This document shows, in pieces, positions 2,601 through 29,446 of a stretch of DNA of 29,446 bases (position 1 is the stretch's first letter; each line of letters opens with the position of its first letter). Position numbers and translations under genes: made by a program. Source of the stretch: Ectocarpus siliculosus (lineage: Eukaryota > Sar > Phaeophyceae > Ectocarpales > Ectocarpaceae). Location: the NCBI GenBank assembly GCA_000310025.1, contig FN649737.1, forward strand, positions 3,636,449-3,665,894, in the 5' to 3' direction. Under the pieces are notes generated by a model. It did not search any database and had not been told where the DNA came from. It saw only the letters and a list, made by a program, of their open reading frames with translations.

Positions 2601-2707
2601 CGTCGTTGCCAAGCGACGAAAACCCAACCCCGATGGCAAACACGGGGGGGGAGAGGGGGGGGATAAACGCATTGCTCACCTGGTGATGTCGCCAGCATAA
2701 CTAACAT
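1..2707 (-). CDS. LINE (non-LTR retrotransposon) endonuclease-reverse transcriptase, 3' part outside window
   Basis: The minus strand is open without a stop from 2,731 to base 1, about 900 codons from an ATG at 2,707 (another ATG at 2,698). The N-terminal half is an exonuclease-endonuclease-phosphatase (APE-type) nuclease: QETW at 2,543-2,554, VYVPP near 2,310, GDFN at 2,195-2,206, LDYILVD near 1,990 and STDHF near 1,925. The reverse transcriptase follows: GNYRGITLLN near 925, the catalytic Asp in FLDVKKAYD near 700, QGVPQGCTLSP near 540 and the FADD box at 407-418. In this family the protein nicks the target DNA and primes cDNA synthesis on it. The first 45 or so codons, up to about 2,580, are proline-rich, encoded by C-runs and unlike an endonuclease N-terminus, so the true 5' end or a 5' truncation may lie near 2,580. 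The C-terminus lies left of the window. No stop or frameshift is visible, so this copy could be recent. Confidence 0.9.
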   Translation of the reverse strand, partial: MLVMLATSPGEQCVYPPPLPPRVCHRGWVFVAWQRRCKTSPPLRDLDVVGIQETWELKDGDVVSKIGKYRWVGKARKGLDPKKRGEGGVGFLVKEHLYDVVEVVVKTEFEESLWLKIPGERGEKDLFLGNVYVPPSSKKVASKAQENFGQIGEDVQRFSRKGEVVMVGDFNSRVGKACSRGQAIGQHGEDKVNDNGVRMLEFLGSNELMVLNGRRESDKPEFTRQRAVCNEYSILDYILVDRGSTQVPELHVSAIDIGSTDHFLIWANIDRSRKTKSKKKRKVFRWKVERLGDEGTRDEFQKGLAGSVEPFRKLLRSVEDGKVDVQAAGDRVIEGWESIVNTTAERVVGKKVVRCGVSVKWWDDELKEEIGERREVFKQYLGEGSEESWEKYRAKRKQVKGLVKKKKKSIWDEVVQKANGGLEGNVKQMWEGISGMVKKTAQGGDTGVATLRSVNGGLVSSGKGKREVLAGHYKRLGVPSENEDFDQVFKKEVDAWAQKEEETSKADVGNVELEKEFTEDEVEACVNKLQCHKAAGADGIVNEFMKFGGKGMIQLMVLLYNWVWKNEYAPSRWREGVVVNLFKKGDKTDPGNYRGITLLNTVGKVFCKLLNDRIVGVLEKKRSISEGQAGFRQKRGCVDHAFTVGRIIQGRKRAGKRTYCFFLDVKKAYDTVWRNGLWKQLSKYGIKGKMWRVLKKMTECTKSAVMLDGELSKFFDIEQGVPQGCTLSPTLFQVFINDLLEVVEAVRKGVKVGDTETSVSGMLFADDFVGMSDTPEGLQLQIDAAKKFADKWRLSANVTKSAVMVCNEGREEPVEHRWKWGIEEIAVVDQYTYLGVEIAKDCSWNAHMSKVAEKGKARAGKLHPILANRHLDIRIKLTVLKSVIVPPLEYAGEVWEGNKKVV

Positions 2708-2731
2708 GGGGAGTCGGCAAGACCTGCGTTA

Positions 2732-3225
2732 GTGCCACCAAACTCAACCCGTATTGCTCGCACGCATTCTGCCATGCGAAACTGGGATGCACTTATGCAT
2801 ACGGATGTAGATATGTGACTTTTCTTCCGTGACGAGCGATGAGTCTGTCAGGTGGAAGGTGTGACCACCGTACTTGTTATAGCACAGCATTTTCGGGCTT
2901 GTTGTTGTTGTTGTTGTTTTTTTCCTATTTATTATGGCGACAGTCCCCCCATTTTTCGTGGTGAGATGTGTACTACACTTTTCAGTGTCTTTTTTTACAA
3001 CTAGAACCATCCAGGGTCACACAAGAGAGGGGGCTTTTTTCTTCTTTTTGTTTGTTTTCGTGCCCCACCTTCCTCCTGCGGTGCGTGCTGAATTCTATTT
3101 TTATCGCGAGAAGGGTCCAGCCGCCCCTTTCCCTCGTCAACGTGCTAACGCCGAAGTTTGGTACCCACGAGAGCTTGTTCAGCTATATTTCGCTTTCACC
3201 CGCAATTTTTGTAATTTTTTCACCC
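2732..3225. other. Non-coding stretch upstream of the LINE
   Basis: I see no gene here. There is a short GTT run near 2,901-2,918. A T-rich stretch at 3,035-3,060 reads as an A-rich tract on the minus strand, and may be the 3' tail of the tRNA-like repeat that begins at 3,297. Confidence 0.4.
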
Positions 3226-3297
3226 CATGGGGATTCGAACTCACGACCTTTTTGCGACTAGCGGTTTACGAGGACAATACCACTAGACCACCGGGGC
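3226..3297 (-). repeat. tRNA-derived sequence, probable SINE head or tRNA pseudogene
   Basis: Read on the minus strand, the segment has both internal pol III promoter boxes at tRNA spacing. Box A is TGGTCTAGTGG (3,280-3,290) and box B is GAGTTCGAATCC (3,231-3,242). The ends GCCCCGG and ATGGGGT can pair over most of an acceptor stem, but the D, anticodon and T stems do not pair properly, so a working tRNA is unlikely. The following minus-strand sequence runs through a unique body to an A-rich tract near 3,060-3,035, as expected of a tRNA-headed SINE of about 260 bp. The 3' boundary and a target-site duplication were not established. Confidence 0.55.
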
Positions 3298-3652
3298 GAC
3301 CGGCTCGTGTGTTGCAGAGAGAAACCTAATTCGAAATCGACCTTGGCTTAGTCTAGACACAGTCGTGAGAGTTGTTCGTTTGAGGGTCGACTCGTTTCCG
3401 TGTGTAACCAGGAAGCACAAATTAAGACTTGAGCCCAACTCAGTAACTAACAATCTTACTGTAGCTCAAGTGGTGGGGTGGCTGAAGATGGTGTACCCCC
3501 CACAGAATATCACACCTTCGATGCGACGGCCTACTCTTGTTACGTTGTAAAACCGTATGGCTGATGATGCCAACCAGCGCAAAGCATGGCTGCCCTTCCC
3601 CCTTTTGATTCCCTGCCCCCCTGGTCGCTCGTGGGGTTCAAAATGCATCCAG

Positions 3653-4474
3653 GTTCTTGCACATCGCGCTACTTTTGGAGCACATCGTGGCGCTCATCGC
3701 TATCGCCTCCACTGTCCTCAAGTACGCTCTCCCGGTGACGGCGTCGAACTGCAATGCAACTCACAAGGTTTCGACCGCATTCGCCATCTTGTTCGATGTG
3801 AGAAAAAGTTACTCCGTAGGATCTATTTAGTAGTAGTGGGGGTTCCCGCACAAAGCCAATTTCACACGCTTTGTTGTAGGGCGACTTCCATATTAAGACC
3901 GACTTGTTCGGGGACCGCCAGTGTGGCTGATTGGTTGGTTGAGAACTGGTGTCTCTCGCATGGTAAAGAGGACACCGTTCTGCTTTCCCGGAAGGAGAAT
4001 AATATGTCTTGCCCCCTGCTACCGCGTGCAATAGAACAGTGCTGTATTCGTCGCATTTCGTGCTGATGGTGATTCACGTTCACTTAGATCGCGATATATA
4101 TCCAAAGAGTCAAGCCAGAATTAACATGAACCATGTGTGACCCAGATTCCCAGTTGATAAACCGCTATCTCATCCAACTATTGCTCGTGGCTTCACACCT
4201 ACTTACCTCGCGGTTGTTCCATACCATGGTACGGTCAAACTACGAAAACAAGCGTATTTCTAATACCGTAGTTTCTTCGTGGTTACTGTTTTTCTTTTGG
4301 TGCGTCTTGCACCCCTCTTCTCACTCCTTACTCCGTTGTCAGGCGAGTCTTCTGACGTTTCTCCTCTTCAAGGTCGATGTGACTAACGGCATCAGAAAGC
4401 TCTCCTGCTGGGAGAAGGGCGTGATCTGGATATGCAGGGCATTCGCGTGGATTTATCTGTGAGAGAGAGAGAGC

Positions 4475-4506
<32 letters not shown>

Positions 4507-7500
4507 AGGAGAGAGAAAAATGCACAGAGAGAGAGAGAGCCTCCTTGTGACCCGTTCTTTCGTGTTCCAACCCTTAGGTTCCAACCCTTAGGTTAGGTTT
4601 AGGGTTACGTTTGCCTGGCAGGAATTTCTCGTCGTGGGGCATGGTGTGGCAACGGTGAACGTGTACTACTGCTGATGTTCTCTCGCTGCGGTAGAAATTT
4701 GGGCTTGATACCATTGGGTGTTCATATGGGACGTCATATGGGAAGTCCCATGGGAAGTCCCATATGAATTCCCAATAATGCAAGTACCAACAGTTATATG
4801 CAGGTCGCCTCCGAAATGCGACGCGAGCTTGGTAATGATCGTGCTGTGATCGATTTTTCCCCAACAACTGTTATCCTTGCGGTTTGCGGTGCAATCCAAT
4901 GTTCTTGCGGAGCAGGCCTTTGGCGTCGATCTTCGTGAGCGCCACCTACCCCGGTGGTACTAACGAAGAGGTGGGTACAAGAGTGATTCACATCAAGCAC
5001 ATGGTACGGGTAGTACTTAGCAAATATCTACCAGGTACATTTGTATGTGTCTTGCTTTTTGTCATGGTAGTCATGTGCCTGTCACAATCACAGGGTTGGC
5101 TCAGGAGCAGAGATTCGATCGTCGATTCCTCGAAGAAACCAAAGACAGACGTTAACAGAGTACAACTGTACGCCAGAACATCCTAGTTGTGGTACGCACA
5201 TCATGTGGTGGCAGCAACCTCCTACAATCTCCCACACTAGTGACAGTTTTGATAAATCGCCCATGGGCTACCCATGGGTCACCCATGGGCCGTCCATGGG
5301 CCGTCCATGTGCTCTTCATGGGCCGCCCATTGGCCGCCCATGGGCATGCCCATGGGCGGCCCATGGGTAGCCCATGAAGTGCCAACAACCTAGAACTTCG
5401 CCACCGACCTATCGACCTAGAACTTTGCCACCAGCGCCAACCTAGCACGTATCGTGTGGGCTTGGGGTTAGGGTTAAGGTTGGCGTTAGGGTTATTTGCC
5501 GTTATAGTGCCCGTTCCAAAGCACCTTATCTATTGTTTAGGAGTAACCTGTTCTCATTAGCCGCCAATGGGCTTCCCATGGGTTGCCCATGGGCCGCCCA
5601 TGGGATGCCCACGGGCTACCCATGGGCAAGCCCATGGGCGACCCATATGGGCTGCCCACGGGTGACCCATGAGCGACCCATGGGAGTCCCATGGGTCGTT
5701 TGGGAAAACTGTAGAAAGTGTGGGAGCCCCATCTCCTATGTACTTGGATTGTTCATCTTCCCGACGTCGTCGTGTGGTTGGCCTCTTGATTCATGTGCAG
5801 GGCACGTTTTGCGAGAACGGTTTCAAGAGGGACGAAGACGTGAACTACGAGCGCGAGGCTAGCGACAACGCATACGGGTACGCCGTCACCAACGCGATGC
5901 TGTTGGTCCAGGTGAGGGGTCGATCGAAAACAGAACCTAGGCCAAGCAAGAAATCTTGCAAACATTTTGAGGTTCTTGAGGTGAACAGCAATGCGGTCTT
6001 CTTTCCCTGCCCCCCGCCCGCTTTCCCTTACCGGAGTGGTTACGGTTAGAGTAAGGATTGGCTTTTGTGCGAGCGGACTGGCATGCGATCTGATCCGATG
6101 TCGACACGTCTTTCGGTTGTTATTTTGTTATTTTCCCGCCGTCATCAGTACGTGCTGCTGCTGATCCTGTTCGTGAGGCCCCTCATGGTTCGTCTCGAGG
6201 GCGCCCAGTCCGGAGGGGCGGTCTACCGCAGCGTGGTGATCAGAAACATATCGTGCACGGTAGCCGTGGTCGTGTCCTACATCATCACCACCATTGTCAC
6301 GGTCATCGCCCTGCTGCGACAGCACCCCAACGATACCGCGGTATGTGTGTATGTGGTACGGTACGGAATTCCCTGCGTTGTTGCGTTTTTTTTTGTTGGG
6401 AGCGTTTAGACACACTTTTCTCTCAAAAACAAGTTACCATCACTGCATACATGCAGTAGCGGCTATGGTTTAAGCGAGATTATTTTTAGGGAAAATCGGA
6501 TATAAGAGTTGTGTTTTTACTTGTCCCGATCATGAGAAATACATGAACCACATATTACACAGGCAGCGGTTTAAGAGAAAATCACATTCATCGAGTGGTT
6601 TTTGCTTGTCCCAACCCTCTCTTATACATACCGTAGCCGCTACTGGAATTGTTTTCCCGCGCAAACGACAGTCACGACGCGGTCAACGTGAATGGTTGAT
6701 GGTATTATTTGCAGAAAATTCGTCACAATCAGCCCATCACGTGATACCCAAACTCCACTATTTCACGGAACGTTGGCTATCGAAACAGGATGACTTTGGA
6801 GCTGCGCAAAAACGCAATTTTTGTTTTTTCCCGGCATTACCATTGTTACTCTAGGATACTGTATTCAGTTCAGTGAGAGCTGCGGTAGAATGGACATAAT
6901 AATGGAGAAGAAGAACGGGGAAAATCGTTCATGTCACCAGAGTCGCACACAGTTTCATCGCCACTCTTCGGGTTAGTATGCATATGAGGCAACAAAAACA
7001 CCGCGAAAGATATACCGTAGAGAAATATCGCACCGGCGCCACATACTGTTGGGAGCTGTTCGGGCATGAGGTGATACGTGCAAGGCTGCTTGCTCCGGCG
7101 CTGCTTCCAAACCACTTACAGTAAGAAATGTTTAGTTGACGTGTGTAACCCTTTTGGGTAGTTGTTATTCATTGTCCACCCCGGATCCGACTTTCTACTG
7201 AGGTGGCGGCAATGGTCGAAGCCAGCCACGAGCTCAGCAGCAGGGCACCGTTCGAGCGACATTATTTCGCCTGCATGCTATAGGCATTGCGGGGGAGATA
7301 TGGGGGGTGGTATCATGCATCATCAGCCGCGCCCACGACTCCGTTTCTATTTTCTCGTTCCCACACGGGAGTTCAATCACGTGTAGTGCGTTGGTTTAAT
7401 CACGTTTAGTGCGTTGGGTGGTGGAGACGGTTACGCATGGTTGCGCATAGATAGCCGAATACCAGCATCCCCGTACAGGTGACGTCATGATGAGGATGTA

Positions 7501-15768: not shown

Positions 15769-18700
15769 TCAGGCGGGGGCGGTCCCGCACGGCCCCCCAC
15801 CCATGCAAGACATCATATTTGCTATAGCCGCGTCCACGTCGGTCTGCTCCTTGTTGTCACCGTACTGACCCCAGAAAGTGAACTTGCAGTTGTCGTCGAC
15901 GTGCCCAATCGCGTGTTCGTGCTGCACAACGGTGAAGTTAAAGGGGTAGTCGAAGCGCGGGTCCGGCAGGCCCAGGCTGCGCCCGTCGCTTGTGGTCACC
16001 GTCTCAAGATAGCGCACGGACGCCGTGTTAGGGGCGGGGTTGTTGGTGAACTTGACGTCGAAAGAAATGTCGACGACGGAGAAGGCACCGGCCCACCACC
16101 CGGGGTCGGAAACTGGCCAAGGGCGGGAGGCACAGAGGCAAAGCGGACGAGCGAGGGGTTGGCGGAGCGAAGATCCGCGATGAAGGGCTACAGTAGTGCA
16201 AGCAGACTACTTGGGGTGGCGGGAGAATAAGGCTTCATTCGGATAGCAGCCTTGACTCCACTGTCGATTCACTGACGTTTCGTTTCCCTGTCGTCTCACT
16301 GTCGACGTTTGTACGGCAGAGCGTTCGATGCTCTTCGCAGGTTGTAGGTGCTGAACTACATAATAAGCGATCCGTTTTTGTCGGCACGCTCCAGGTCCGG
16401 TTAAACCATCCTTACGCCGTTTTGTCAGCCGTCTGGTGCACGGCATGGTGCACTTTCTTCCGTGCAGCATATTCTCTGTTCATTTCACACGAAAAAAGGA
16501 CTGCTCGTCGACATGTTGCTGCACACACGTCCTCTTCCCTGCCTCGAGACACGCTAGTGATTCTCTCAAAGCAGTTTAGTCTATTGGGGAAGAGCCAAAA
16601 GTGTGTCAGCCAATCCATCCGCCATACCGGGGGACTTGCATTGTGATACTGGGCGGGAATAGTGCGGGAAACCGTTCGTTCCGGTCTGGAAAAACCCTGC
16701 ACGTCTTGCCGCGAATGATTGACTGCGATTATTTCACAAAAATTCTCGCTATCGCGAACTAAGGCAAGGGGAGGAGTGAGTGCGGCTCTCATATGCTTCT
16801 ACCCTCCTCCTTCGAGTAGATGTAGTTCAGATGTTCTTCATCGATTCCATGGATGAGTGATGGGTGTCTGTCTTCATTTGGCTGTCGTTGGAGAGTACTT
16901 TTTCGGCACCAGCACCATCATCAGTACCTACGTGTAGCGAGGCGACAGACCAAAAACGGTGCGATTTTCTGGCAGATCATATCATTGTGCGTGCGTGCGT
17001 GTAGCCTCAGCACCCGACCCGCAGATGCAACTACCTTGCTGAGTCGTGTGACGTCACTAATAATTGCCTATACAGTAGTCAAACCATATGTTTTTTTCCG
17101 CGTTGTTGGCCCTGAAAGGTAAACTACGCTGGGGTGCAGCAAGCCCGTGCTGGGCGTTACTTGGGACACTGGGTAGTCGGCCGTGTTAGGCCGAGAGAGA
17201 GAGAGATTGAGGTGGCGTTGGAGTAAGCGTTGGAGAAGGAAACTTGATTGGAGAGAGCGACGGCGGTAGCGGTGGAGAGAGAGGAAGTGAGCTGCACGCA
17301 CGCAAGCCTCATCACATCCGCCACGCCAAAAGGGTCCCCGTGACTGCACCGGTGGTACCCCACAACACACGAAATTCCCAACACGTATCCCCCTGGGATC
17401 CTCACGACCAGATACTGTTGCGAGTATATCTAACATCCCCCCTGCTCGCAACAGTTTCTCACTAAAAACTTTGCTAACATCTGATATCTCAACCAAAAGA
17501 CGTATTTTCCAGAATAATATGCCATCAAGATCATGCCAAAATATGAGAGAGAAAACCAATTCAAAGAAACATACATGCTGCATCGCGCGTAACGAATACT
17601 TGGCGCGGAAAACGAAACAAAACCAAAATAAACTCATCAGACACACAACACTCATGCCAAATTCATCACAAAATCACGGTGAGACTCAAAAGCATCCTTC
17701 GACAAACTCTTCGTGAGAAAGTCTGCACGCTGGTACGGTGACGGCACGTGGATTACCGAAATTTCCTTCCTCTCTACCAGTTCCCGGAGAAAATGGTGCC
17801 TTACATCTATGTGCTTCGAGTTCGAGTTCGAGATGGGGTTCTGCGCTAGTTGAATCGCCCCCTGGTTGTCCTCGAATATTGGGATGCACGGCATGCCAAC
17901 CTGTGGCAGCATGAAACGCCAAACCTGCCTCAAAAACAAAACCTCCTTCACTACATCACCAAGCGCGACGTACTCTGCTTCTGTCGTCGAAAGCGTAACG
18001 CACTTTTGCGTTCTGGAAAACCAAGACACGGCGCCTCCTCCACACGTCACCATGCCCCCTGATACCGACCTACGGTCTGCTGCCTTGCTTGCAAAGTCCG
18101 CATCAGCGTACCCCTGCAAGCTGAATCCCTCTACCGTACCTCTCTGATATGAAATACCAAGTGACTCGTCCTCCCCGCATACCCTAAAATACCTATCGCT
18201 GCATCCCAGTGGACCTGCTTCGGAGATGCGCAATACCTCGCTACTGCCCTTACAGCATTCGCAATGTCTGGTCTAGTCTGAGTCGCCAGCCACATCAAAG
18301 ATCCGACTGGCTCACGAAACGGAAAGTCTGTCTCTACCTCATCCGCATCAAAATCAGAAAGCTTCACTCCCGAAGACATCGGAACGCTCTTACCCCCGAC
18401 TATTCCATACTCTGCTGCTAGCTCATCCGTGAAAGTCTGCTGAGAAATCGTCAACCTACCAGTATCCTTGTTCCTCTCGAAAAAGCAGCCAGAATACCAT
18501 CTCAACTCTCCCCAGGTTCTTCACCGGCACAGACTTGTTGAGGTCAGCGCCAAACTTGCCACATCTCTCCCTCTCTCCGACAGCAAAAATATCATCTACA
18601 TGTACTATAATACCAAGATCAAAACAACACACCCATCCTCAATCAATCGAAACACACAAGCATCGGCCAAACACTGCTCAAATCCCAATGCTATCAAACA

Positions 18701-21700
18701 CCTCTTTAGCATTGCATGCCACTGCTTAGATGCCTGCCTCAAGCCATACAGAATCTTGCCAAATTTTACAATCATTCCAGATAGAGCTCCACATCCCTGC
18801 GGTAGGCGCATGTACACGTCTTCCTCCAACTCCGAACGCACAAAAGCTTGCTCAATATCGAAATGACACAGGTCGAGGTTAAACTCGCACGCCAAAGCAG
18901 CCAACATCCTAACATACGAAACAGAAACGGTAGGCGCGTACAACTCTCCAAAGTCAATGTACTCTCTCTGCATATCATCTCTCGCTACAAGTCTCGACTT
19001 AACCTTGGTGGGCCACCCAAACTCATCTGCCTTCCAATCGAATACCCACTTAGCGTTAATTGCATTCTCCACTAATTGCTACTTTGCCGGAGTAAAAGTC
19101 CCCGCTTCCAACAAGCCGTAAAACTCCCTTTGCATGGAGTCGCTCCAGAGGTGTCGGTGCTCCGACGCCATGGCCTCGTTGTAGCTCTTTGGAACACGAA
19201 GGTCGCTAGCCTGGCAGTGCGGAAGGTCAGGGCGTTGCTCCGGCGGGCGCTGGTCTCGCAGCATGGCGTCAATGTCTTCCCGGTTGGCGAGAAGCGTGGC
19301 AAATGCAAGTGGGAAGCCAGCTCCTCCAGCCCCCGGGTCGACCGCTGCGAGTGCTCCCGCCTGCTCTCCTCCCCCCGCTCCCCCCGGCTCCCTGCGCTCC
19401 TCGTCCACCGCGCTCCGAGTCTCCAACATCGACACCAGAGTATTCTTGTCTAGCATCGAGATGAGACCTGTGCTGTGCCTGGTCCCCGATCTTGTGCGGC
19501 TCGGCAGCCGCGGGTCTGTCATACCCTCGGCCTTCTTACCCGAGCGAAGCTGCCGCATGGCGTGAGCCGTAAGCAGGGGCATCGCGTGGTCCGGCGGCGG
19601 CGGCTGGGCTGAATCGGGAGTCGCCGACGGTGATGTCGAGGCGGCAGAAGGCGGAGCTGGAGCGGGAGCTGGAGCGGGAGCTGGAGCGGATGATGGCGTG
19701 GGCGCTGGCGGCGGCGTGGCGACGATCGAAGGCTTTGGAGCGGGCGCGTTAGCTGGAGCGGGCGCCGGCGTGGGCGCTGGCGGCGGCGTGGCGGCGGTCG
19801 AAGGCGTCGGGACTGGGCCAAAGTTGATCGAGACGACCGGCGGCGTGAACGGGGGGTGCGTCGGCGCAGCGGTGATACCAGCGGAACCCCCCTCGCCGGC
19901 AGGCGCCGACGTCACCCACGATACGTTGTTGGTGTAGACGACGCGGCCGGTGGACGCCTTGAGGACCTTGACGGTGCCGCTCGGGTGGTTGTCCCCGCCG
20001 TTCAGGTAGTAGCCGAGGGTGGCCTGGTCGTCGAGCTTAGTGCGGCGATCCTCACGCATGAAGCCGGGCTGGAAGAACCTCAGCACGCGGAACGGCCCCT
20101 GCTCGCCGGTGAACATCTCGAGCGGCGAGCATCGCCCGGGGTTGGCCTTGGTCGCCGACTGGTTGAGAGCGTCGGCGGCCCACTTCGCTGATTCCATCCA
20201 AAGACGGTCACCGCGCTGGTCGAGGCCGGGGATGGAGGCGAAGTCGACGTTGAACACACGGCCAGCGCTGCGGCGGGCGGCCATGCCGGCCTTCATAATC
20301 CGCCAGATGGCGCTCTCGACGACGCCGTTGTACTTCGGAGTGCCAGGCGGGGTGAACTCGACGCCGATGCCGTTGTCGTCGCAGAATTGCCGGAAGTCGC
20401 CACGGGTCCACTCGGTGCCGTTGTCGACGCGGAAACACTCGATGCGCCCGAGGTCGTACCGCCCCACGTCCGCCAGCAGCCTTTTCGTTGCCGCCAGCGC
20501 GTCGGACTTCCGCCGGAGACCGTAGACCTTGTTCCACCGCGAGGCGCTGTCGACGGCGACGAACAGGTAGAGGTTGCCGCCCAGGGAAGGCACAAGCGGT
20601 CCACACAAGTCCAGGTGAACACGCCCGAGTGGCTTGAACGCCCGCGCTCCCGGCCCCCGCGGCACCGACGCTCGCCTGCCCTTCGCCTTCATGCAGTCCG
20701 TGCACGGTTCCAGCTCGCCTGTGAGAGTGATGCCCCTCTGCCGAGCAGTTTCTCTCAATAGCGGTTCACAAGCGTGTGCGAGGGAACGGTGGAAGCGGTT
20801 GATGTCCACGGACTGATCGGTTGAACCAAGAGCAAAGGGGGACGCACCAGGGCCAAGCGCGGCCGCACCCAAGTCAAAATCAGCACCCCCATCAATATCA
20901 TCCAAAACAGCAGCCACACGCGCAGCATCAGTCTCAGGGATAAACGCGGGGAAAAACTCTTGATACGGGGTGTCATCATAGCCATCCATGAGCTGCTCGT
21001 CGGTGAGCACACTCGTATCTCCAAGATCCATACCCGGAAAAGTACCCACACACACAAACTCGGACGCCGAAGAAGGTACTACGCCGGCAGAGCCGGCGGG
21101 CGGGACGCTCTCACTCGCAGGTACTACACTGGTGGGACCAGTGGGCGTGACGCTATCAGTCGAAGGTACTACGCTGGTGGGACCAGCGGGCGTGACGCTC
21201 TCACTCGAAGGTACTACGCTAGCAGAGCCAGCGGGAGGAAAACGCAACACTGACACCAATTCGCGGAGCCCCCGCTGGGGGAAGGGGAACACGAATCGGG
21301 GGCATTCACGAATGCGGGCAAAGCAGCAGAGTCTACTACAATCGCAGATGGGTCGTAAGGCAACCGCATAGCATAAGCGGCAGACGCTTTCTCCTCTCTA
21401 GCAAACAGCAGTCCATTTTGTAAAGTCGCACCACGCTCGTCTTGAAGGATTTGTTGCTTGAGGGAAACAGCATGCGTGGAGAACAGGTTGAAATTCAGGC
21501 TTTCCACTACAGATACGTCTGTCAGCTTCACACACATCGTCGTTTGTTCGCCATTCTCATCCTCCTGAAAGAAGCTAAGGTTGATGCTACCGATAGCTTG
21601 CACTTCTAGCAGTCGACCATCACCTACGACGACATACTTCCTATTTGCGGGGATCTCCTGCAGGTCGTACATGTGTAGGCTACTGTTGGTAAAACTGTTG

Positions 21701-24700
21701 CTTGCACCTGAATCAGCTACCCATCTCTCGCTACCAGGCGGCCCCTCACTACATTCCACACTCAGCAAAGACGAAGCAGACGCAGCAGACTCAACTCCAA
21801 TCGTCACTCCTATCCTACCAAAAAAATCTTCGGGGTGAGACTTGCCTAGGGGCACCGATTGTGCCGTGCAGAGGTGGAGGTAGCCCGAAGATGGAGGCGT
21901 GCCAGGAGAAGGGGTTGAGGACGAGGAGGAAGCGGTGCTGCTGCTGCTCGCGGGGGGGGCCTGACGTGGCTGCTCGGATGACGAATCTTGGCCGGCGGGA
22001 GGGTAGTAGACTTAGTGGATCCTGCCGTCAGATGAACGGCTGTCTTCGTACCCGGAGGAGTAGCTGTAGCTGTCCCCGCCGCCGGCGTAGTGGGCGTACC
22101 CGGCGTCGTGGTAGTCGTCGTCGTAGGAGTAGCCGTCGTAGTAGTCGCCGTAATCTTCGTAGTAGCCACCATCATCGTGGGCGTAGTACACAACGTACGC
22201 CTGCTCTCTTCTGTGGCCAGGACGCGCGTGCCCCGGGCCTCTCCCTGCCCGCTCTCTCTCGGCACGACCGTCGCTGCTATGGTGTCCCGCGGGCCCACGA
22301 CCCCCCGTGTGACTCCCCAGACGACCACCAGGCCCACGTCCACGAAGAGGTCGCGGGGGGGGTGAGGCTTGGCTCCAGCCACCGCCACCATGACCGGTGT
22401 GGTGCTGCTGCTCTATCCTCACCCATCGCCCGCCACCGCGGTCGGGTCCCGGCGGCGGTCTACCCCCTCGCTGGCTACCGCCGCTACCGCGGATGCCGCC
22501 GCCCGAGCGGCGTTCCTCGGCGCCCTCTCTCGAACGCGCGCGCCGCAGTTTCTTGTGGAAACGACACTGCTCGTTGGTGTGAAAATCGGACTGGTGGTAG
22601 CGGCAAAATCCGTCGGGGTCGTCGTTGAACACGTCACCCTTTTTGTTCTCTCCGTCACGATCTGGACCGCCAGCTGCTCCGTGGCCGCCGTCTTGACCCC
22701 CGGATGCCCCCCCACTGCCCCCGCCGCGCCGGCCCATGCCGGACGCGGCGAGAGCGAGCTCCACCTCGCGCCTCTCCCCCTTGCTCCTCTCGCGCTCCAT
22801 CTCCACGTGGGCGTCCCTCACCACAGTCTCAAGGGTACGCAACGTCAGGACATCATGGGCAAGCAGTATTCCTTTTTGCACGACATACAACGAAGAGGGA
22901 AGGCCACGAACAATGTCTTTGTTGGCATCTGTTTCATCCATAATCGTGCCTACAGATGCTAGACGCAGGCGAAGGGCTTCTGCCCGGGCAATATAGTCCT
23001 GTGGACTCTCCGACTCTTTCATCTCCAACTCCTTCCAGTCCTGCTCCAACCTAGACTTTTCTGACTGCTTCTTCTCTTGATAGAACTCGGTCACTATTTT
23101 CCAGCCTTTTTGTGGACTCTCACACACCAGAATCAAACTCTGAATCGGGGGGTACAAGACCTTGCTGATGAGAATATTCCATAGTTTGAAAGACTTGTCT
23201 ACCACATTATTGCCAAAAAGTCTCCGAAGCTCTGCTACATTCACACCTTTCCAACCTTGACCTCGACCTCCAGTTCCAACGCATCATGCACACCCTCCTC
23301 CTGAAAATATGAAATCATCTTACCACGAAAAATATCAAACATAACATACAAGTCCTGCTCCTTCTTCACGCTACCAAGCCAAGGTTCTATTTCTGAGCCA
23401 GGATTGACACGAAACGTGCCTGAGCGGGCAAAGCCCTGTTGTTGAGCGATGGCCTCAGCTGTCGCCTTAGCCGCTTGCGCCACGATGTGTGCGACGCTGC
23501 TGGGGTCGTTGAATGTGGCTGGTGTACCCTGGCTGGAGGGTGATGGTTGGTTACCAGTAGGTGGGACTGGGTTGCCCGCTGGAGTGGCTGGGTTGCCGGC
23601 TGGTGGTTGGGCAATGGTGACTTCTCCCTCGTTGATCCTGTTGGCTTCGAGTTCGGCTTGCACTCGTTGCTGGACGATTTCCTCCACTTTTTGTTGTAGC
23701 TCTTCCCCGCTGAGGGCGGAGAGGTCGATGTCCTCCATGATGTTTGGTGTTGTGGGAGTCTACCGATTGCGCGTGACTGCACAACCCCCGGAAGGCTACG
23801 CCCGCGCGCAGATACCGTGATATCGCACTAGTGTGAAAGGTAAACTACGCTGGGGTGCAGCAAGCCCGTGTTGGGCGTTACTTGGGGCACTGGGTAGTCG
23901 GCCGTGTTAGGCCGCGAGAGAGAGATTGAGGTGGCGTTGGAGTAAGCGTTGGAGAAGGAAACTTGATTGGAGAGAGCGACGGCGGTAGCGGTGGAGAGAG
24001 AGGAAGTGAGCTGCACGCACGCAAGCCTCATCACATCCGCCACGCCAAAAGGGTCCCCGTGACTGCACCGGTGGTACCCCACAACACACGAAATTCCCAA
24101 CACGTATCCCCCTGGGATCCTCACGACCAGATACTGCTGCGAGTATATCTAACAGGCCCCACGAAACGTTGGCGCTGCACTGCACGATGCTACCACATCG
24201 ATAGCCGTCAATAGAGTGCAAGACCCGGAAATCTGGTAGCCACATCGCAATCACTCTTTCATTCGCAACAAATTAGTATGTTGTCTTCCTTCTCTTTGTG
24301 CTTCGATGCTTGGGTTGGATACCTGTGTTTTATTGAGTGCTTGCATGTGTCTTTTCTTCTCTTGACACGCGCGCGTTTTTGTCGGTGGTAGCGAGCTTGT
24401 TCGTTAGGTGGTTGCACGCGCGCTCGGTGATGTGCTCGTTTATATGCATGCGTAGTGCTTCTTTTATCGTGACGGCGGCAGCGAAGAAACAACCGGTTGT
24501 TTGCGTGTCTTTCATCGATCGTACGATGAATGTACTATTAATATGACTAGATCTTTGCAGCCTCTCAAGCGTTGTTGGTGATTGCTTCGCCAGTCAATGT
24601 CAGTGCCTTGATTACAAAGACCAGATGGAGTTCACGATATAGCGAACAAGAAAGAACGTGTAGTCTATAGATGCAGGAGATACCATCAATCTTTTCTACC

Positions 24701-27455
24701 AAAAATTCTGGCGAGAGGATGGGCGTGTAGACGACGCACTGCTGTTGAAACGCACACCACCCGGATCCATCCCTGGGTGTGGGTACGTTGCTCGTGATGT
24801 ATGTGTAACTCTTCTGAGATCTTCGTGTGTGTGCTGCTGCGCCAAATATTTACCGTCATTCATGCGGATACACTGGCATCGCGAAACTTCACACAGACAG
24901 ACCAGCTCGGAGATTCTATGCTGCTGCGGGCGCGTGATAGGTGCCAGTTGCAGCACCCCCGTTTGTGTATCGAGTAGTCTATCCCGAAAGCGGAATAATT
25001 GGAATTGCTCGATAGGGCCGTTTTTATATAGTCTAGTCTAAATTCATTCAATTTTTTGTTCCTAAGTACAAATTTTCCGAAATTAATTCCGGAACTTTTA
25101 CAGAGAGAGAGGCGTTTGTCCAAATATATTAAAAAAATTGGCAGCAAAAAAAAGCCACCGGGACAGATTTAACTTGGCGTCCGCCAATCAACTGTCTCCA
25201 TTTAACTTGGCGCCTACTTGGCGTCTTGTCTATTTTCGAGTAATTTTGGCAATTACGCCGCTTTTTCTTCTGCGCGCACCGCATTCGAACCAACCAGTTC
25301 AGAGACCGACACACATCAGGCGGGAGCCTGGGCGCTGCAACTGACGCATACCAGACGCCAACAGCAGCAGAGACCACTCTGGTTTCTGTGTGCACGAAGT
25401 TTCGCGATGTCAATCCACACTGAGTGTCGATGACGAGTACGCAGCAGCACCCGCTAGAAGAAGAGCTATACAAACACGAACGCACGCATCACGCACACAC
25501 ACGCGAATATTTTATGTCGAGCTACTGCAGCACAGCAGTAGTACCCACACCCAGGGATCCATGCATGCTTTTATATCATCTGCACGCCCGTCCTCTCGCC
25601 AGAACACTTCAAGTAACGTGATGATGATGCTCTGGCAGCTCCGCGTTGTTTTTTTTCGCTCTCTTGACTCCATCTATCGGTAGGTTCTTTATTGGAGTGA
25701 ACACCCCACCCAAAGCAATCGCCATCAATCATCCATCCATCCATCCCGACGCGTCGGTTTGTTGACAACCCGCATGGCAAAATATATGCACGGCGATTCT
25801 TTTGCTGCCCCAGTGACGGCACCTCTGCTCTGGTGTCTCCTTTCCTTCATCGATTCATAGAGTGAGGTGCAACATTTTGAAAGCGTTTGGCTCGCAGATG
25901 AATGGGTTTCACCGTTTATTGGCGGGCTTCGCCCGCATAATAATTAAAACTCCTAGAAGCTCTGTCCCGGTACATCAAAAATTTGCCAAAAAATTCGGAA
26001 CGAACCTGGGCGCCAAAATTTGTATAGAGAAATCCCCAAAGGCGCCAAGTTACGCATACGGGACAGCGAACAATAGTAGAAGTACATAATTGGCGGACGC
26101 CAAGATTTTTTAATCGAGGTCGTTACTTGAAGTTGTAGTCTATGGATACAAGCAGCTGTTTTTGTGTCCCGGCGGGGGTGTACGCCGTGTAAGTAAGTCT
26201 TGTTTAAGTCTTGGTTGCTACATGCGCGGCATATTCCAACGATAAATATGCGTCATATGTATGCATCCATACCAAGTCATAGATCTACAGGGGGTCTGCC
26301 AGCTTGGGTCTGGCCCGCAGCCCAAAGCCCCGCTGGTCCCCTGGTCCGCTGGTTTGTGCGAACTTTGAAGTACACCCTGGGCGCTTGGCGATTGTGATTC
26401 GCTCCTGTCTCTGTCTGTCTGTCGGTTGGCCTCTGTCTCTCTCTCTCTCTCTCTCTCCCGGCCCTCTCTCTGTCTACTGTCTACAAGTATGTGTACTCTA
26501 CACTCAATGCCGGTGGTGCAGCCCGGCGGCGCATGTTCTTTCGAGATTCTCCGCAAGGAATGAATGCGATGCGAACCAGGAACAGACACGTCTGTCTGTC
26601 CTTCCATATGGCCATATGGACGAAAGGGTCGAGGCTTGAAGTGGTGCCTCCAGCCCCCCCTCCGCATCAATTGCATGGTGACTCTTCAGACTGGGATGTA
26701 CAACATAATAATCTCTGATTCTGTTTGCTTGCTCGTTTTGCCCGTCTGTGTTGTTGTTGTTGTCTTCACATTACAATGTGTCGCTCTACAATGTTTTCGC
26801 GAGGCATGAAGAAGCGAATTATAGTCTACAGCAGCAGCAGCAAGCCGTGTTACTGCTGTAGCAGCAAGCCACTCAAACAAAATATCGCTCCCATCAATCT
26901 TGTTGACGCCACCATGAAACGCACCATCCTTTCTTTATTCACCTCGTCATGTTGGTCGTGGGTATATTACAGCGGAAATGGAGAGCACATCTGCCTTCTT
27001 CGTCACAGCACATCTTCTTGTATAATATGCGTACCTTGCTTGTGGCGGCGTACCGTATTATTCCAAGAGGCTACAGCAGTAGTCTACACAGCAATGGGAG
27101 CGGTAGTCTACATAACATGTATGTTGTATGCATTTTAATCTTTCCGAGTGCATGCCCAGGTTGCTTCTCTCTATGACTTCTGTTGCTGTGCCTTTTCCTC
27201 ACCTGCCATAGCCCCAGTAGACTCCTCATTGTGAAAGCGTTGGAAGCCGGGGTCATAGGCAGCAGCAGCGCACGCACTATCCTTCTTCGTGACGCAGTCA
27301 AACAAGGCAAGGACGGCTCCAACTGGATCCGGGCACCCTCTAATATCCGCATCAGCAGCAGTTGATGATGAACAGCTCGTGCCTTCTTTCGCAGCTACAG
27401 CAACAGCAGCGAATAGGAGAGAAGCCCCCGTGATTAGGGCAGAGGAGAATTTCAT
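15769..27455 (-). CDS. Secreted SnoaL/NTF2-like small protein, two exons split by an 11-kb intron
   Basis: Exon 1 (27,455-27,203) starts at ATG and encodes 84 residues plus one base. Its signal peptide (MKFSSALITGASLLFAAVAVA) is followed by a Cys-containing helical stretch with CPDPVGAV, FDC and AAYDPGFQRFHN. It ends GCAG/GTGAGG, a strong donor. Exon 2 (16,112-15,769) follows a pyrimidine-rich acceptor (CTTGGCCAG/TT) and supplies the other two codon bases. It encodes WWAGAFSVVDISFDV, RYLETVTTSDG, TVVQHEHAI, CKFTFWGQYGDN and EQTDVDAAI, then a TGA stop. The joined product is 198 residues with cysteines at 28, 41, 54, 62, 160, 187 and 193. Helix-rich N-terminus plus beta-rich C-terminus fits the SnoaL/NTF2-like alpha+beta cone fold. 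I recall similar secreted proteins from diatoms and brown algae, but this was not checked. The role is unknown; ligand binding or a small-molecule enzyme activity is possible. The alternative is two broken paralogues, but the phase match and continuous domain order argue for one gene. Confidence 0.7.
17113..17435 (-). repeat. 3' LTR of the copia element
   Basis: The 323-bp repeat reads TGTTAGATATACTCG at its 5' end on the minus strand and ends CCTTTCA, so it has TG..CA termini. It carries a (GA)7 run where the other LTR has GC(GA)5. Confidence 0.95.
17436..17443 (-). other. Polypurine tract
   Basis: On the minus strand AGGGGGGA directly abuts the TGTTAG start of the 3' LTR, as required for plus-strand DNA priming. 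Confidence 0.85.
17444..17651 (-). other. copia 3' untranslated region
   Basis: About 200 bp of A/T-richer sequence lies between the RNase H stop and the polypurine tract, with no frame of note. Confidence 0.6.
17652..18190 (-). CDS. pol: copia pol: RNase H
   Basis: The frame (open from 18,233) has the RNase H signature residues: D in GYADADFAS, E in STTEAEYVAL, D in FEDNQGAIQ and D in KHIDVRHHFLRE. It ends VMNLA with a stop at 17,652, about 210 bp before the 3' LTR. The domain would degrade the RNA template during cDNA synthesis. It has no internal lesion. Confidence 0.9.
18131..18505 (-). CDS. pol: copia pol: reverse transcriptase connection region
   Basis: The frame carries RWYSGCFFERNKDTG, LTISQQTFTDELAAEYG and FPFREPVGSLMWLATQTRPD, a typical copia RT C-terminal region before RNase H. 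Both ends are frame changes relative to its neighbours, near 18,490 and near 18,190. Confidence 0.88.
   Translation of the reverse strand: MRWYSGCFFERNKDTGRLTISQQTFTDELAAEYGIVGGKSVPMSSGVKLSDFDADEVETDFPFREPVGSLMWLATQTRPDIANAVRAVARYCASPKQVHWDAAIGILGYAGRTSHLVFHIREVR
18605..19078 (-). CDS. pol: copia pol: reverse transcriptase, first part (after in-frame TAG)
   Basis: In frame with the integrase but after a TAG. NAKWVFDWKADEFG, KSRLVARDDMQREYIDF and the first catalytic Asp in CHFDIEQAFV are present, followed by VYMRLPQG and ILYGLRQASKQWH. The frame ends VVLILVL-stop. The VDD catalytic box follows at once in another frame (HVDDIFAVG, about 18,604-18,580), so a one-base change breaks the enzyme at its active site. 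Confidence 0.9.
   Translation of the reverse strand, partial: QLVENAINAKWVFDWKADEFGWPTKVKSRLVARDDMQREYIDFGELYAPTVSVSYVRMLAALACEFNLDLCHFDIEQAFVRSELEEDVYMRLPQGCGALSGMIVKFGKILYGLRQASKQWHAMLKRCLIALGFEQCLADACVFRLIEDGCVVLILVL
19079..21292 (-). CDS. pol: copia pol: integrase and start of reverse transcriptase
   Basis: This 737-codon frame carries an HHCC zinc domain (H168 and H173 in FHRSLAHACE; C197 and C200 in CTDC). The integrase core has D228 (HLDLCGPL), D290 (VDNGTEW) and E326 (NGVVESAIW). A GYYLNGG..VSWV region and a long Pro/Ala linker (about residues 490-570) follow. It ends with the start of the RT (LRVPKSYNEAM) and meets TAG at 19,081-19,079, after which the RT continues in the same frame. 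N-terminal to the zinc domain lie four 45-bp repeats encoding a GPTSVVPSTDSVTPT-like unit. The integrase would insert element cDNA with the 5-bp duplication seen here. Confidence 0.92.
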   Translation of the reverse strand: MFPFPQRGLRELVSVLRFPPAGSASVVPSSESVTPAGPTSVVPSTDSVTPTGPTSVVPASESVPPAGSAGVVPSSASEFVCVGTFPGMDLGDTSVLTDEQLMDGYDDTPYQEFFPAFIPETDAARVAAVLDDIDGGADFDLGAAALGPGASPFALGSTDQSVDINRFHRSLAHACEPLLRETARQRGITLTGELEPCTDCMKAKGRRASVPRGPGARAFKPLGRVHLDLCGPLVPSLGGNLYLFVAVDSASRWNKVYGLRRKSDALAATKRLLADVGRYDLGRIECFRVDNGTEWTRGDFRQFCDDNGIGVEFTPPGTPKYNGVVESAIWRIMKAGMAARRSAGRVFNVDFASIPGLDQRGDRLWMESAKWAADALNQSATKANPGRCSPLEMFTGEQGPFRVLRFFQPGFMREDRRTKLDDQATLGYYLNGGDNHPSGTVKVLKASTGRVVYTNNVSWVTSAPAGEGGSAGITAAPTHPPFTPPVVSINFGPVPTPSTAATPPPAPTPAPAPANAPAPKPSIVATPPPAPTPSSAPAPAPAPAPAPPSAASTSPSATPDSAQPPPPDHAMPLLTAHAMRQLRSGKKAEGMTDPRLPSRTRSGTRHSTGLISMLDKNTLVSMLETRSAVDEERREPGGAGGGEQAGALAAVDPGAGGAGFPLAFATLLANREDIDAMLRDQRPPEQRPDLPHCQASDLRVPKSYNEAMASEHRHLWSDSMQREFYGLLEAGTFTPAK
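21075..21240 (-). repeat. 45-bp minisatellite inside pol (15-residue repeat)
   Basis: Units start at 21,075, 21,120, 21,165 and 21,210, exactly 45 bp apart, each opening GGTACTAC on the plus strand. On the minus strand they encode repeats like GPTSVVPSTDSVTPT between the protease and integrase zinc domain. Confidence 0.93.
21214..22011 (-). CDS. pol: copia pol: aspartic protease region
   Basis: Directly after the gag TAA the same frame continues (VYYPPAGQDSSS) through a Ser/Pro linker into the protease. WVADSGASNSF holds the catalytic DSGA motif at about 21,715-21,705. YVVVGDGRLLEVQAIG and NFNLFSTHAVSLKQ follow, the usual beta-strands and pre-integrase start. The frame ends in LPLALLA with TGA at 21,214, while the integrase frame overlaps it from 21,292, so a frameshift lies between. 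The enzyme would cleave the polyprotein during particle maturation. Confidence 0.85.
   Translation of the reverse strand, partial: VYYPPAGQDSSSEQPRQAPPASSSSTASSSSSTPSPGTPPSSGYLHLCTAQSVPLGKSHPEDFFGRIGVTIGVESAASASSLLSVECSEGPPGSERWVADSGASNSFTNSSLHMYDLQEIPANRKYVVVGDGRLLEVQAIGSINLSFFQEDENGEQTTMCVKLTDVSVVESLNFNLFSTHAVSLKQQILQDERGATLQNGLLFAREEKASAAYAMRLPYDPSAIVVDSAALPAFVNAPDSCSPSPSGGSANWCQCCVFLPLALLA
22012..23244 (-). CDS. gag: copia gag, C-terminal part with zinc knuckle and Tyr/Asp-rich tail
   Basis: A 410-codon frame begins at GTG 23,244 only because the preceding codons belong to the other gag frame; it need not start here. VNVAELRRLF and the helical region KGWKIVTEFYQEKK are typical of a copia capsid (UBN2-like) domain. 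A zinc knuckle variant C214-X2-H217-X4-H222-X4-C227 replaces the usual CCHC. Residues 246-345 are Arg/Gly-rich. Residues 349-400 are almost all Tyr, Asp, Gly and Ser. The frame ends at TAA 22,014-22,012, and the protease follows in the same frame, so gag and pol are separated only by this stop. Confidence 0.85.
   Translation of the reverse strand: MNVAELRRLFGNNVVDKSFKLWNILISKVLYPPIQSLILVCESPQKGWKIVTEFYQEKKQSEKSRLEQDWKELEMKESESPQDYIARAEALRLRLASVGTIMDETDANKDIVRGLPSSLYVVQKGILLAHDVLTLRTLETVVRDAHVEMERERSKGERREVELALAASGMGRRGGGSGGASGGQDGGHGAAGGPDRDGENKKGDVFNDDPDGFCRYHQSDFHTNEQCRFHKKLRRARSREGAEERRSGGGIRGSGGSQRGGRPPPGPDRGGGRWVRIEQQHHTGHGGGGWSQASPPPRPLRGRGPGGRLGSHTGGRGPAGHHSSDGRAERERAGRGPGHARPGHRREQAYVVYYAHDDGGYYEDYGDYYDGYSYDDDYHDAGYAHYAGGGDSYSYSSGYEDSRSSDGRIH
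23241..23738 (-). CDS. gag: copia gag, N-terminal part
   Basis: This 165-codon frame starts MEDIDLSALSGEEL and ends VKVGKV with TGA. It has a predicted coiled or helical start (ELQQKVEEIVQQRVQAELEA), a proline-rich PAGNP repeat, and then GSEIEPWLGSVKK and DLYVMFDIFRGK. The frame stops where the next gag frame, one base back, takes over. Gag is usually one continuous chain, so this is either a one-base indel or a programmed -1 frameshift. The product would be the structural protein of the particle. Confidence 0.75.
   Translation of the reverse strand: MEDIDLSALSGEELQQKVEEIVQQRVQAELEANRINEGEVTIAQPPAGNPATPAGNPVPPTGNQPSPSSQGTPATFNDPSSVAHIVAQAAKATAEAIAQQQGFARSGTFRVNPGSEIEPWLGSVKKEQDLYVMFDIFRGKMISYFQEEGVHDALELEVEVKVGKV
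23834..24154 (-). repeat. 5' LTR of the copia element
   Basis: The 321-bp copy is nearly identical to the 3' LTR. It should hold the element's promoter. The minus-strand sequence directly downstream (CACTAGTGCGATATCACGG) is where a primer-binding site would be, but I could not match it to a tRNA with confidence. Confidence 0.95.
24713..25600. repeat. Imperfect inverted duplication, arms of about 250 bp
   Basis: The left arm (about 24,713-24,965) reads TTCTGGCGAGAGGA, GGATCCATCCCTGGGTGTGG, CATCGCGAAACTTC and CCAGTTGCAGCACCC in order. The right arm (about 25,325-25,600) has the same blocks in the same order on the minus strand, with indels between them. The arms are diverged and separated by about 360 bp. 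Confidence 0.75.
25129..26114. repeat. Region bounded by inverted TTGGCG dyads (possible TIR element)
   Basis: CTTGGCGTCCGCCAAT at 25,173-25,188 has its exact reverse complement at 26,089-26,104. Each is itself a TTGGCG-TC-CGCCAA dyad. Outside them lie TTAAAAAAA (left) and its inverse TTTTTTAA (right). Further TTGGCGCC-type sites occur at 25,207, 25,218, 26,010 and 26,043. This may be a second non-autonomous DNA element or a protein-binding array. No coding frame was recognised. Confidence 0.45.
26402..26475. repeat. CT/CTGT microsatellite
   Basis: CTGTCTGTCTGTCGG is followed by a (CT)n run at 26,431-26,458 and more CTCTCTGTCT text. Confidence 0.9.
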
Positions 27456-27599: not shown

Positions 27600-28854
27600 A
27601 CGTCAGTGCCAGCGGTTAAACTCAAGGTCCCTGGAAGGGGGCCAAAATTCGAAAAATGCGCAATTATGAGACGGTTGTCTCCAGGTTCGCGTGTGAGCAA
27701 GTTCCCGTTGGGATGTGTGGTGTGGATACACACCGATTCAACCTCTGGTGAAGAGGCTGACGAGTACGGATAGTTGTGTTGAAGCAAGGTTCAGCATCCA
27801 TCCGACACTGACTCTATCTGTGGCAACACCCCGAAGGTAGATCTCCGACGACAGGTCATCTGACGTCACAATCTACTACATACATTGTCTCGATGCTTTC
27901 GAAATTTGTCATTATTTTGCGTACCCCCTTTGCTCGCCAAGGGGGAGGGGAAAAGAGCGGAGACCAGGCAGGGCAACACACCACACACGCCCCCGGTCTA
28001 CTCCTTACGATCAGTATAAACATCAGCCACCCAACGGACAGAAATATATACACTCTGTCTGCCCCCTGGTAACCACACCTATGTGTTCATACTGAAACCA
28101 CGAGAGAACCCCACAAGGCCCATCAACATTAACATCGCCACTAGGCGAAACACTCGGGCCACCAAGAAAAAACCAGTTTCCCGTCTCTCGCTACTCTCTG
28201 TTCCCCTGACACTCCATCGCACTGCAGAAAAAAACACACATGTCGCCAGGACCCCACGTACAATTAATCATATAATATATACGGGTGTCCACCAATCAAT
28301 CAGACTCGTAACGCACGCAACGGGGAAGCGCGCAGCACCAACGCAGCCGCACACAGCAGCCAATAGTGCACGCCCCCAACCATGCAACGGTCCGATACAC
28401 ACACCAACATGCGTCCTGCATATATACAACCTGAAGTAAATGCGATACACACACATCCCACTCAGAAAAAAATGGAAATGGGGACGAGCACCTCGGAACC
28501 GCGCCCAGCATAGGCACACGCGACCCCGACTGCGGCTACACAGTGAATCCCCCCGACAGGCCATCACATTGGACACAACGCCGCCGCTCCGATTTCCATG
28601 TCCACTGACACCCCCAAAAGCAAGGGTGGGTGGGTGGGAAAAAGAAACGTCACGGCAGAAACAACCCTTGGCCACCACAAGCACACACACGTGCTCTCGC
28701 TCGCCCCCGGTTAAACACGGCGAAGCGAGTATATACTGAAAACAGGAATCAACACGCTCGTCCGCTTCCTGCTTTCTGATTGGCCAACGGTTTATTTCTG
28801 CCGCTTCTCACAAAACACAGATTTCCCTTACTTCGTCAGTCAATCTTTCGCTTT
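27600..28854. other. Region between the secreted protein gene and the right LINE: no gene seen
   Basis: Apart from the 63-bp LINE-related repeat at 27,888-27,950 I see no coding signal. The stretch 28,080-28,740 is A/C-rich on the plus strand and gives only low-complexity translations. Confidence 0.4.
27888..27950 (-). repeat. Isolated 63-bp copy of the LINE 3'-end sequence
   Basis: It matches 28,855-28,916 almost base for base, including GATGCTTTCGAAATTTGTCA and the hairpin arms CCCCCTT (27,924-27,930) and AAGGGGG (27,939-27,945). No LINE coding sequence precedes it, so it fits a heavily 5'-truncated LINE insertion. Confidence 0.7.
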
Positions 28855-28916
28855 TCTCGATGCTTTCGAAATTTGTCATTTTTTTGCGTACCCCCTTTGC
28901 TCGCCAAGGGGGGGGG
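28855..28916 (-). repeat. 3' untranslated end of the right LINE with stem-loop
   Basis: It lies just after the stop codon of the LINE C-terminal frame in minus-strand reading order. Arms CCCCCTT (28,891-28,897) and AAGGGGG (28,906-28,912) enclose an 8-base loop. Shared sequence with the 27,888 copy ends at ..CATCGAGA on the minus strand, which probably marks the element's 3' end. Confidence 0.65.
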
Positions 28917-28923
28917 CGTACTC

Positions 28924-29446
28924 TTATGCTTTGCATGCCTTAGCGGTTAGACCATTGACCACGCGTCCTCGAGAGGACGGAGCATTGTTCCCACAGGACC
29001 GATCACCGATGGCCAATCGTTCCTTCCTACTTTGCCAAAGGTGGCTCAAAAATGTCTTCCCTAGTCTGTCTATCCTACCGATGTCACTTCCCGCCTTTTC
29101 AAACCACTTTCTACTCCCCAGTACCGCTACCGTCCTCTCCTCTCTATTCCATGCCTCAAACATCTCCCTGTACGTCCCTTGTATTCTTCCCAGCTCAGTC
29201 ATGTACACTTCCCTCTCCTTTTCGTACCACGGACATTCCGCGACTACATGAACACTGTCTTCGCATTCGAAGCCGCAATCGCATTTGAACTTGTCGTCTT
29301 CGTCGTCTACCGTCCTATGTCTTCGTCGACGTTCGCGAAGGCCTATGTCCCCGGTCCTGAATTTGACCTTAAGCTTTGTCCCTGCATCCATTGGTCCATG
29401 TAGGTAATCCTTGAACCCTATTCCTTCTTTCAACATTCCGTACACT
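28924..29446 (-). CDS. LINE C-terminal region with CCHC-type knuckle, 5' part outside window
   Basis: The minus strand is open from the right edge to the stop at 28,924 (at least 173 codons). FKCDCGFECEDSVHVVAECPWY gives the Cys/His cluster (C-X-C, C, H, C) found after the RT domain in many LINE proteins, followed by YMTELGRIQGTYREMFEAW and RIDRLGKTFLSHLWQSRKER. Base composition and Lys/Arg/Glu-rich style match the left-edge LINE, so the two are probably copies of one family; they cannot be the same copy, because each runs off a different edge. In related elements this domain helps bind target DNA or template RNA. The last dozen codons (RGRVVNGLTAKACKA) contain a tRNA box-A-like string on the same strand. 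Confidence 0.82.
   Translation of the reverse strand, partial: VYGMLKEGIGFKDYLHGPMDAGTKLKVKFRTGDIGLRERRRRHRTVDDEDDKFKCDCGFECEDSVHVVAECPWYEKEREVYMTELGRIQGTYREMFEAWNREERTVAVLGSRKWFEKAGSDIGRIDRLGKTFLSHLWQSRKERLAIGDRSCGNNAPSSRGRVVNGLTAKACKA

What the first reader, a model, noticed from the sequence alone, without database searches (positions are those of the whole stretch)
15769..27455. A small secreted-protein gene split by an 11-kb intron that hosts a complete retrotransposon
Exon 1 ends with one spare base at a GCAG/GTGAGG donor. Exon 2, 11,090 bp away, begins with the two bases needed, after a pyrimidine-rich AG. Joined, they give a signal peptide, helical N-terminus and beta-rich C-terminus in the order expected for a SnoaL/NTF2-like protein. 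Annotators would probably miss it or call two fragments. The intron carries a recent same-strand Ty1/copia insertion, so it also tests how a 199-codon gene tolerates a 7-kb element with its own promoter and polyadenylation signals.
Basis: partly seen in the sequence, partly recalled or inferred. Interest (0 to 1): 0.75.

Follow-up and report, generated by a model that had tools for sequence, protein, structure and literature searches.

The report
Two-exon algal gene, retrotransposon-filled intron
A small, probably secreted brown-algal protein gene really is split into two exons by an 11-kb intron that was later invaded by a 7-kb retrotransposon, an arrangement that looks ordinary for brown algae although the protein itself matched no known family.

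Summary
Minus-strand exons 27455-27203 and 16112-15769 join in phase 1 into 198 residues across an 11,090-nt GT-AG intron. New evidence: two paralogues in the same assembly carry both halves, same order and strand, split at the same position and phase by introns of 4,817 and 791 nt.

The insert, 17113-24154, is a same-strand Ty1/copia element with two LTRs (4 differences in 321 sites) and a GGCCC duplication: structurally complete, reading frames interrupted. A second multicopy repeat lies at 25132-25994. The 4.8-kb paralogue intron was filled by other repeats.

The SnoaL/NTF2 label got no support from the sequence searches made, and fold models were uninformative. Intronic transposons are commonplace in Ectocarpus (PMC12477816, passages). 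Transcription and splicing were not observed. Verdict: a real, correctly inferred gene in an ordinary setting.

The parts
27203..27455 (-). exon 1 (coding part): ATG, hydrophobic N-terminal stretch, helix-rich half; 84 codons plus 1 base
   Evidence: conserved in two paralogues
16113..27202 (-). phase-1 GT-AG intron, 11,090 nt
   Evidence: same position and phase in both paralogues; a patch of about 50 nt in its last 450 nt is shared with the C24 paralogue intron
15769..16112 (-). exon 2 (coding part to stop): second half of the protein, 113 full codons plus stop
17113..24154 (-). Ty1/copia LTR retrotransposon, 7,042 bp, inside the intron and on the gene's strand; reading frames interrupted
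23834..24154 (-). 5' LTR (321 bp)
17113..17435 (-). 3' LTR (323 bp); 4 substitutions and a 2-nt gap against the 5' LTR
17108..17112 (.). target-site duplication GGCCC, copy 1
24155..24159 (.). target-site duplication GGCCC, copy 2
25132..25994 (.). second multicopy repeat in the same intron (about 863 nt; best other copy 98% identical); class not determined

Best explanation
This is a genuine two-exon gene of a small brown-algal protein family, probably secreted. A spliceosomal phase-1 intron separates the helix-rich N-terminal half from the strand-rich C-terminal half and was present in the common ancestor of the three paralogues. The intron grew by transposon insertion: in this copy a Ty1/copia element and a shorter repeat, in the C24 paralogue different nested repeats. 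Most likely RNA polymerase transcribes through the element and the whole 11 kb is removed as one intron, with little harm to expression. Shown: exon structure by homology, intron conservation, element anatomy and relative age. Inferred: transcription, splicing, secretion and tolerance of the element.
For: Both exons match the two paralogous loci in the same order and strand (again from the C14 protein). All three introns are phase 1 at the same aligned position, with GT donors and AG acceptors: 11,090, 4,817 and 791 nt. Window and C24 introns share a patch (81% over 52 alignment columns, E=4e-8), about 390-440 nt upstream of exon 2 in the window and 440-490 nt in C24. dN/dS between window and C24 is about 0.41 overall (dN 0.206, dS 0.505), 0.53 for exon 1 and 0.33 for exon 2: constraint on both halves, modest for exon 1. 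Six cysteines are invariant in the three proteins, three per exon. Exon 1's read-through tails differ between the paralogues. LTR distance is 0.0126 against dS 0.505, so the element came long after the duplication. In Ectocarpus, 81% of genes carry at least one genic TE insertion and intronic TE load shows only a weak link to expression (PMC12477816, passages).
Against: No transcript, junction or protein evidence was available. Most of the coding divergence predates the insertion: with about 0.006 substitutions per site since, only about 4 changes are expected in the 597-nt CDS, so an intact frame says little about function after the insertion. The LTR element is sense-oriented, which could cause early polyadenylation. 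Secretion was judged by eye only.
Confidence: 0.9

Rival explanations
1. The gene was intact before, but the sense-oriented copia insertion now ends most transcripts inside the intron, so this copy is a recently silenced or N-terminally truncated paralogue.
For: Element with both LTRs on the gene's strand. Two paralogues could provide backup. The coding frame would still look intact, since few changes are expected since the insertion.
Against: Published genome-wide data for Ectocarpus show only a weak link between intronic TE content and expression (PMC12477816, passages). No AATAAA or ATTAAA was seen in the gene-sense strand of the 3' LTR; the 5' LTR and the interior were not scanned for these, and algal signals may differ.
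Confidence: 0.15
2. The two halves belong to different broken genes and their joining is a coincidence.
For: They lie 11 kb apart and no transcript evidence was available.
Against: Both paralogues carry both halves in the same order with the same intron position and phase.
Confidence: 0.01
3. On the nature of the protein, not a rival to the gene model: the joined protein has a SnoaL/NTF2-like fold.
For: Helices in the exon-1 model and mainly strands in the exon-2 model, in an order that fits, both of low confidence. Some motifs look right from memory only.
Against: No SnoaL/NTF2 hit for any of the 3 paralogues in Pfam at E<=10, in NCBIfam (trimmed proteins) or in PDB sequences. Pfam SnoaL_2 finds nothing in this assembly at E<=0.01, though the search goes exon by exon and the family is split by an intron.
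Confidence: 0.35

Closest known systems
Intronic transposable elements of Ectocarpus (Genome Biol. 2025, PMC12477816; abstract and passages seen)
   Same: Host introns are large, TEs inside introns are the rule (81% of genes have a genic TE insertion), and LTR/Copia families are known there.
   Different: [quoted passage not shown] Here a structurally full-length copia sits in an 11-kb intron of a 199-codon gene of unknown age.
Ty1/copia (Pseudoviridae) LTR retrotransposons
   Same: LTR pair, 5-bp TSD, and Retrotran_gag_2, Pol_BBD, integrase core, RVT_2 in that order.
   Different: Reading frames are interrupted in this copy; whether other copies share the interruptions was not tested.
SnoaL / NTF2-like proteins
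   Same: Size of the mature domain (recalled) and a helix-then-strand order in low-confidence models.
   Different: No such match in Pfam, NCBIfam or PDB sequences.

Membership tests
Spliceosomal two-exon gene with a conserved intron | GT-AG boundaries that keep the reading frame | tested here: met
Spliceosomal two-exon gene with a conserved intron | same intron position and phase in homologues | tested here: met
   2 of 2 paralogues found
Spliceosomal two-exon gene with a conserved intron | spliced transcript | not testable with these tools
   no RNA data available
Ty1/copia retrotransposon | two LTRs with TG...CA ends and a target-site duplication | tested here: met
Ty1/copia retrotransposon | copia-type gag, and integrase upstream of reverse transcriptase | tested here: met
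   PF14223, PF22936, PF00665, PF07727 in that order on the minus strand; 4 of 6 frames given had a match
Ty1/copia retrotransposon | uninterrupted coding frame(s), as expected of an autonomous copy (not needed for membership) | tested here: not met
   the domains lie in separate stop-to-stop frames
SnoaL/NTF2-like | match to a SnoaL/NTF2 profile | tested here: not met
SnoaL/NTF2-like | cone-shaped alpha+beta fold | tested here: inconclusive
Secreted protein | signal peptide | tested here: inconclusive
   hydrophobic N-terminus with small residues in all 3 paralogues, judged by eye; no predictor run

The most novel reading that the evidence does not exclude
The sense-oriented copia element acts as a regulated terminator inside the conserved intron: depending on silencing of the element, the gene yields either the full spliced protein or a short secreted N-terminal peptide (94 residues by read-through), in a small algal family whose single intron has been colonised separately by different transposons in at least two of its three members.
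Probability: 0.06. Interest if true: 0.55.

Novelty: new member of a known kind. Interest (0 to 1): 0.28.

Why it matters
It shows that a very long-range exon join can be inferred from raw sequence and then checked by paralogues alone. It gives a natural comparison (introns of 0.8, 4.8 and 11.1 kb at one ancestral position in three sister genes) for measuring what a full-length sense LTR element does to splicing and expression. The published Ectocarpus survey suggests that long elements are tolerated in introns mainly in young, weakly constrained genes (PMC12477816, passages); this family is a candidate test case. The protein family itself had no credible match to a family model or solved-structure sequence searched here.

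Tried and rejected
Considered and rejected: two unrelated broken genes (paralogues carry both halves); an extra small exon between the halves (the three spliced proteins align across the junction without a missing block); SnoaL/NTF2 membership by sequence. The only PDB profile hits were acetyltransferase chains at E 0.4-1.2, taken as chance. The weak Pfam hits were also taken as chance: YxzE 0.01, MP31 0.055 and IMUP 1.2 on full-length members and MP31 0.047 on trimmed ones, each for 1 of 3 members.

Led nowhere: relatives in viral contigs (88 pattern matches, 0 confirmed) and in bacterial and archaeal genomes (65 pattern matches, 0 confirmed). Neither collection is described as holding eukaryote genomes, so this says nothing about other algae. 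The exon-wise structure models were too weak for a fold search, so none was run. Literature: 'SnoaL' with 'brown alga' gave 2 papers in the listing, neither about this by title. The words orientation and polyadenylation do not occur in the main text held of PMC12477816. A search on effects of sense-oriented intronic elements was seen as a listing only and is not used.

Full report
What is there. On the minus strand, exon 1 runs from the ATG at 27455 to 27203 (253 nt, 84 codons plus one base) and is followed by GTGAGG. Exon 2 runs from 16112 to the stop at 15769 (344 nt) and follows a pyrimidine-rich stretch ending CCAG. The intron, 16113-27202, is 11,090 nt. Joined, they give 198 residues.

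Is it more than chance? Searching the window's own assembly (189 Mb, 492 contigs) with the joined protein gave six matches at E<=0.001: the two exons of this gene and two exon pairs elsewhere, at C24:381828-387160 and C14:3598799-3600078, each pair in the same order and strand. Searching with the C14 protein at E<=10 gave seven: the same six exons and one further hit at E=0.45, taken as chance. After fetching both loci and reading their exon ends, all three genes have a phase-1 intron at the same aligned place: the window's 11,090 nt, C24's 4,817 nt and C14's 791 nt, each GT...AG. The whole proteins are 65% (C24) and 41% (C14) identical to the window's. The exon-1 read-through tails are unlike each other. 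Near the 3' end of the intron, window and C24 still share a recognisable patch (52 columns at 81%, E=4e-8), about 390-440 nt upstream of exon 2 in the window and 440-490 nt in C24 (the same match). No such match was found between the window's intron and C14's. The intron position is thus inherited, not an accident of two neighbouring frames.

Constraint. A simple Nei-Gojobori count gives window-C24 dN 0.206, dS 0.505 (exon 1: 0.229, 0.432; exon 2: 0.189, 0.569) and window-C14 dN 0.535, dS 1.61. Both halves are constrained, exon 1 less. This mostly reflects time before the transposon arrived: the LTR distance is 0.0126 (4 substitutions in 321 aligned sites, standard error 0.006), so only about 4 substitutions are expected in the 597-nt CDS since then. 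An intact frame today is weak evidence that the gene still works.

The insert. 17113-24154 (7,042 bp) has LTRs of 323 and 321 bp with TG...CA ends and a GGCCC duplication on both sides. On the gene's strand, in copia order, are Retrotran_gag_2, Pol_BBD, integrase core and RVT_2. Two of the six frames given in that call had no Pfam match: the first, and the last, which by eye (recalled) looks like RNase H. These domains sit in separate stop-to-stop frames, so the element is complete in structure but not in coding frame. The LTR has relatives genome-wide: 40 of 104 candidates were scored and 40 matches are listed; by my count of that list, 10 pairs including this one lie about 6.6-6.8 kb apart, start to start. 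With the published Ectocarpus rate of 4.07e-10 per site per generation (PMC10254074, passages), the LTR distance would mean roughly 15 million generations (4-127 million over that paper's interval). The species here is not known, LTR conversion can shrink the distance, and four substitutions are few. 'Recent' is fair relative to the gene duplication, not in absolute terms.

Other intron content. 25132-25994 is a second multicopy repeat (best other copy 98%). Taking both away leaves about 3.2 kb. The 1,000 nt next to exon 2 matched only themselves in this assembly, by a search that skips simple repeats. The C24 intron holds different repeats: about 1,850 nt of one family inside a second family, by the pattern of matches, together roughly positions 585-3990 of 4,817. 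The C14 intron was not searched genome-wide; about 100 nt of it match repeated stretches of the C24 intron. So the same ancestral intron was enlarged separately in at least two of the three paralogues.

The host. PF19114 (EsV-1-7 repeats) gave 150 matches among 150 scored of 880 candidates, and none in 14 control genomes. That such abundance marks brown algae is recalled, not tested. With the genome size, a brown alga near Ectocarpus is likely but not established. [quoted passage not shown] The present locus fits that picture: unusual in size, ordinary in kind.

The protein. All three paralogues begin with a hydrophobic stretch typical of a signal peptide (by eye) and share six invariant cysteines, three from each exon. 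Secretion and disulfide bonding are inferences. No Pfam, NCBIfam or PDB sequence match supports SnoaL/NTF2. Pfam SnoaL_2 has no match in this assembly at E<=0.01 while it rings in 9 of 14 control genomes; since that search goes exon by exon, it is weak evidence for a gene split in the middle of the domain.

Most likely working. The gene is transcribed through the element and the 11 kb are spliced out as one intron; the element is a passenger. This is inferred. The main rival is that the sense-oriented element now ends many transcripts early, leaving a truncated or silenced copy backed up by two paralogues. RNA reads would settle it.

Noticed in passing
window 2-2728 (-): A 909-codon open frame with reverse transcriptase (RVT_1) and endonuclease/exonuclease matches: a LINE-like element running off the left window end.
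   Followed up: partly
window 28924-29445 (-): An open frame of 173 codons running off the right window end that by eye resembles the C-terminal end of a LINE polyprotein; no Pfam match at E<=0.01.
   Followed up: partly
window 27885-27949 and 28852-28916: Two 65-nt direct repeats, 95% identical, 967 nt apart, upstream of the gene; possibly ends of a short mobile element.
   Followed up: no
window 25132-25994: An 863-nt multicopy repeat in the same intron, with an 11-nt inverted match near its two ends (E 0.37, so possibly chance); class unknown, perhaps a non-autonomous DNA transposon.
   Followed up: partly
window 5262-5376: A CATGGG-rich inverted repeat (46-nt arms, 78% complementary, 23 nt apart).
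   Followed up: no
L007 1661-6477 (C24 paralogue intron): One roughly 1,850-nt multicopy repeat (best copies 94% identical) nested within another repeat family.
   Followed up: partly
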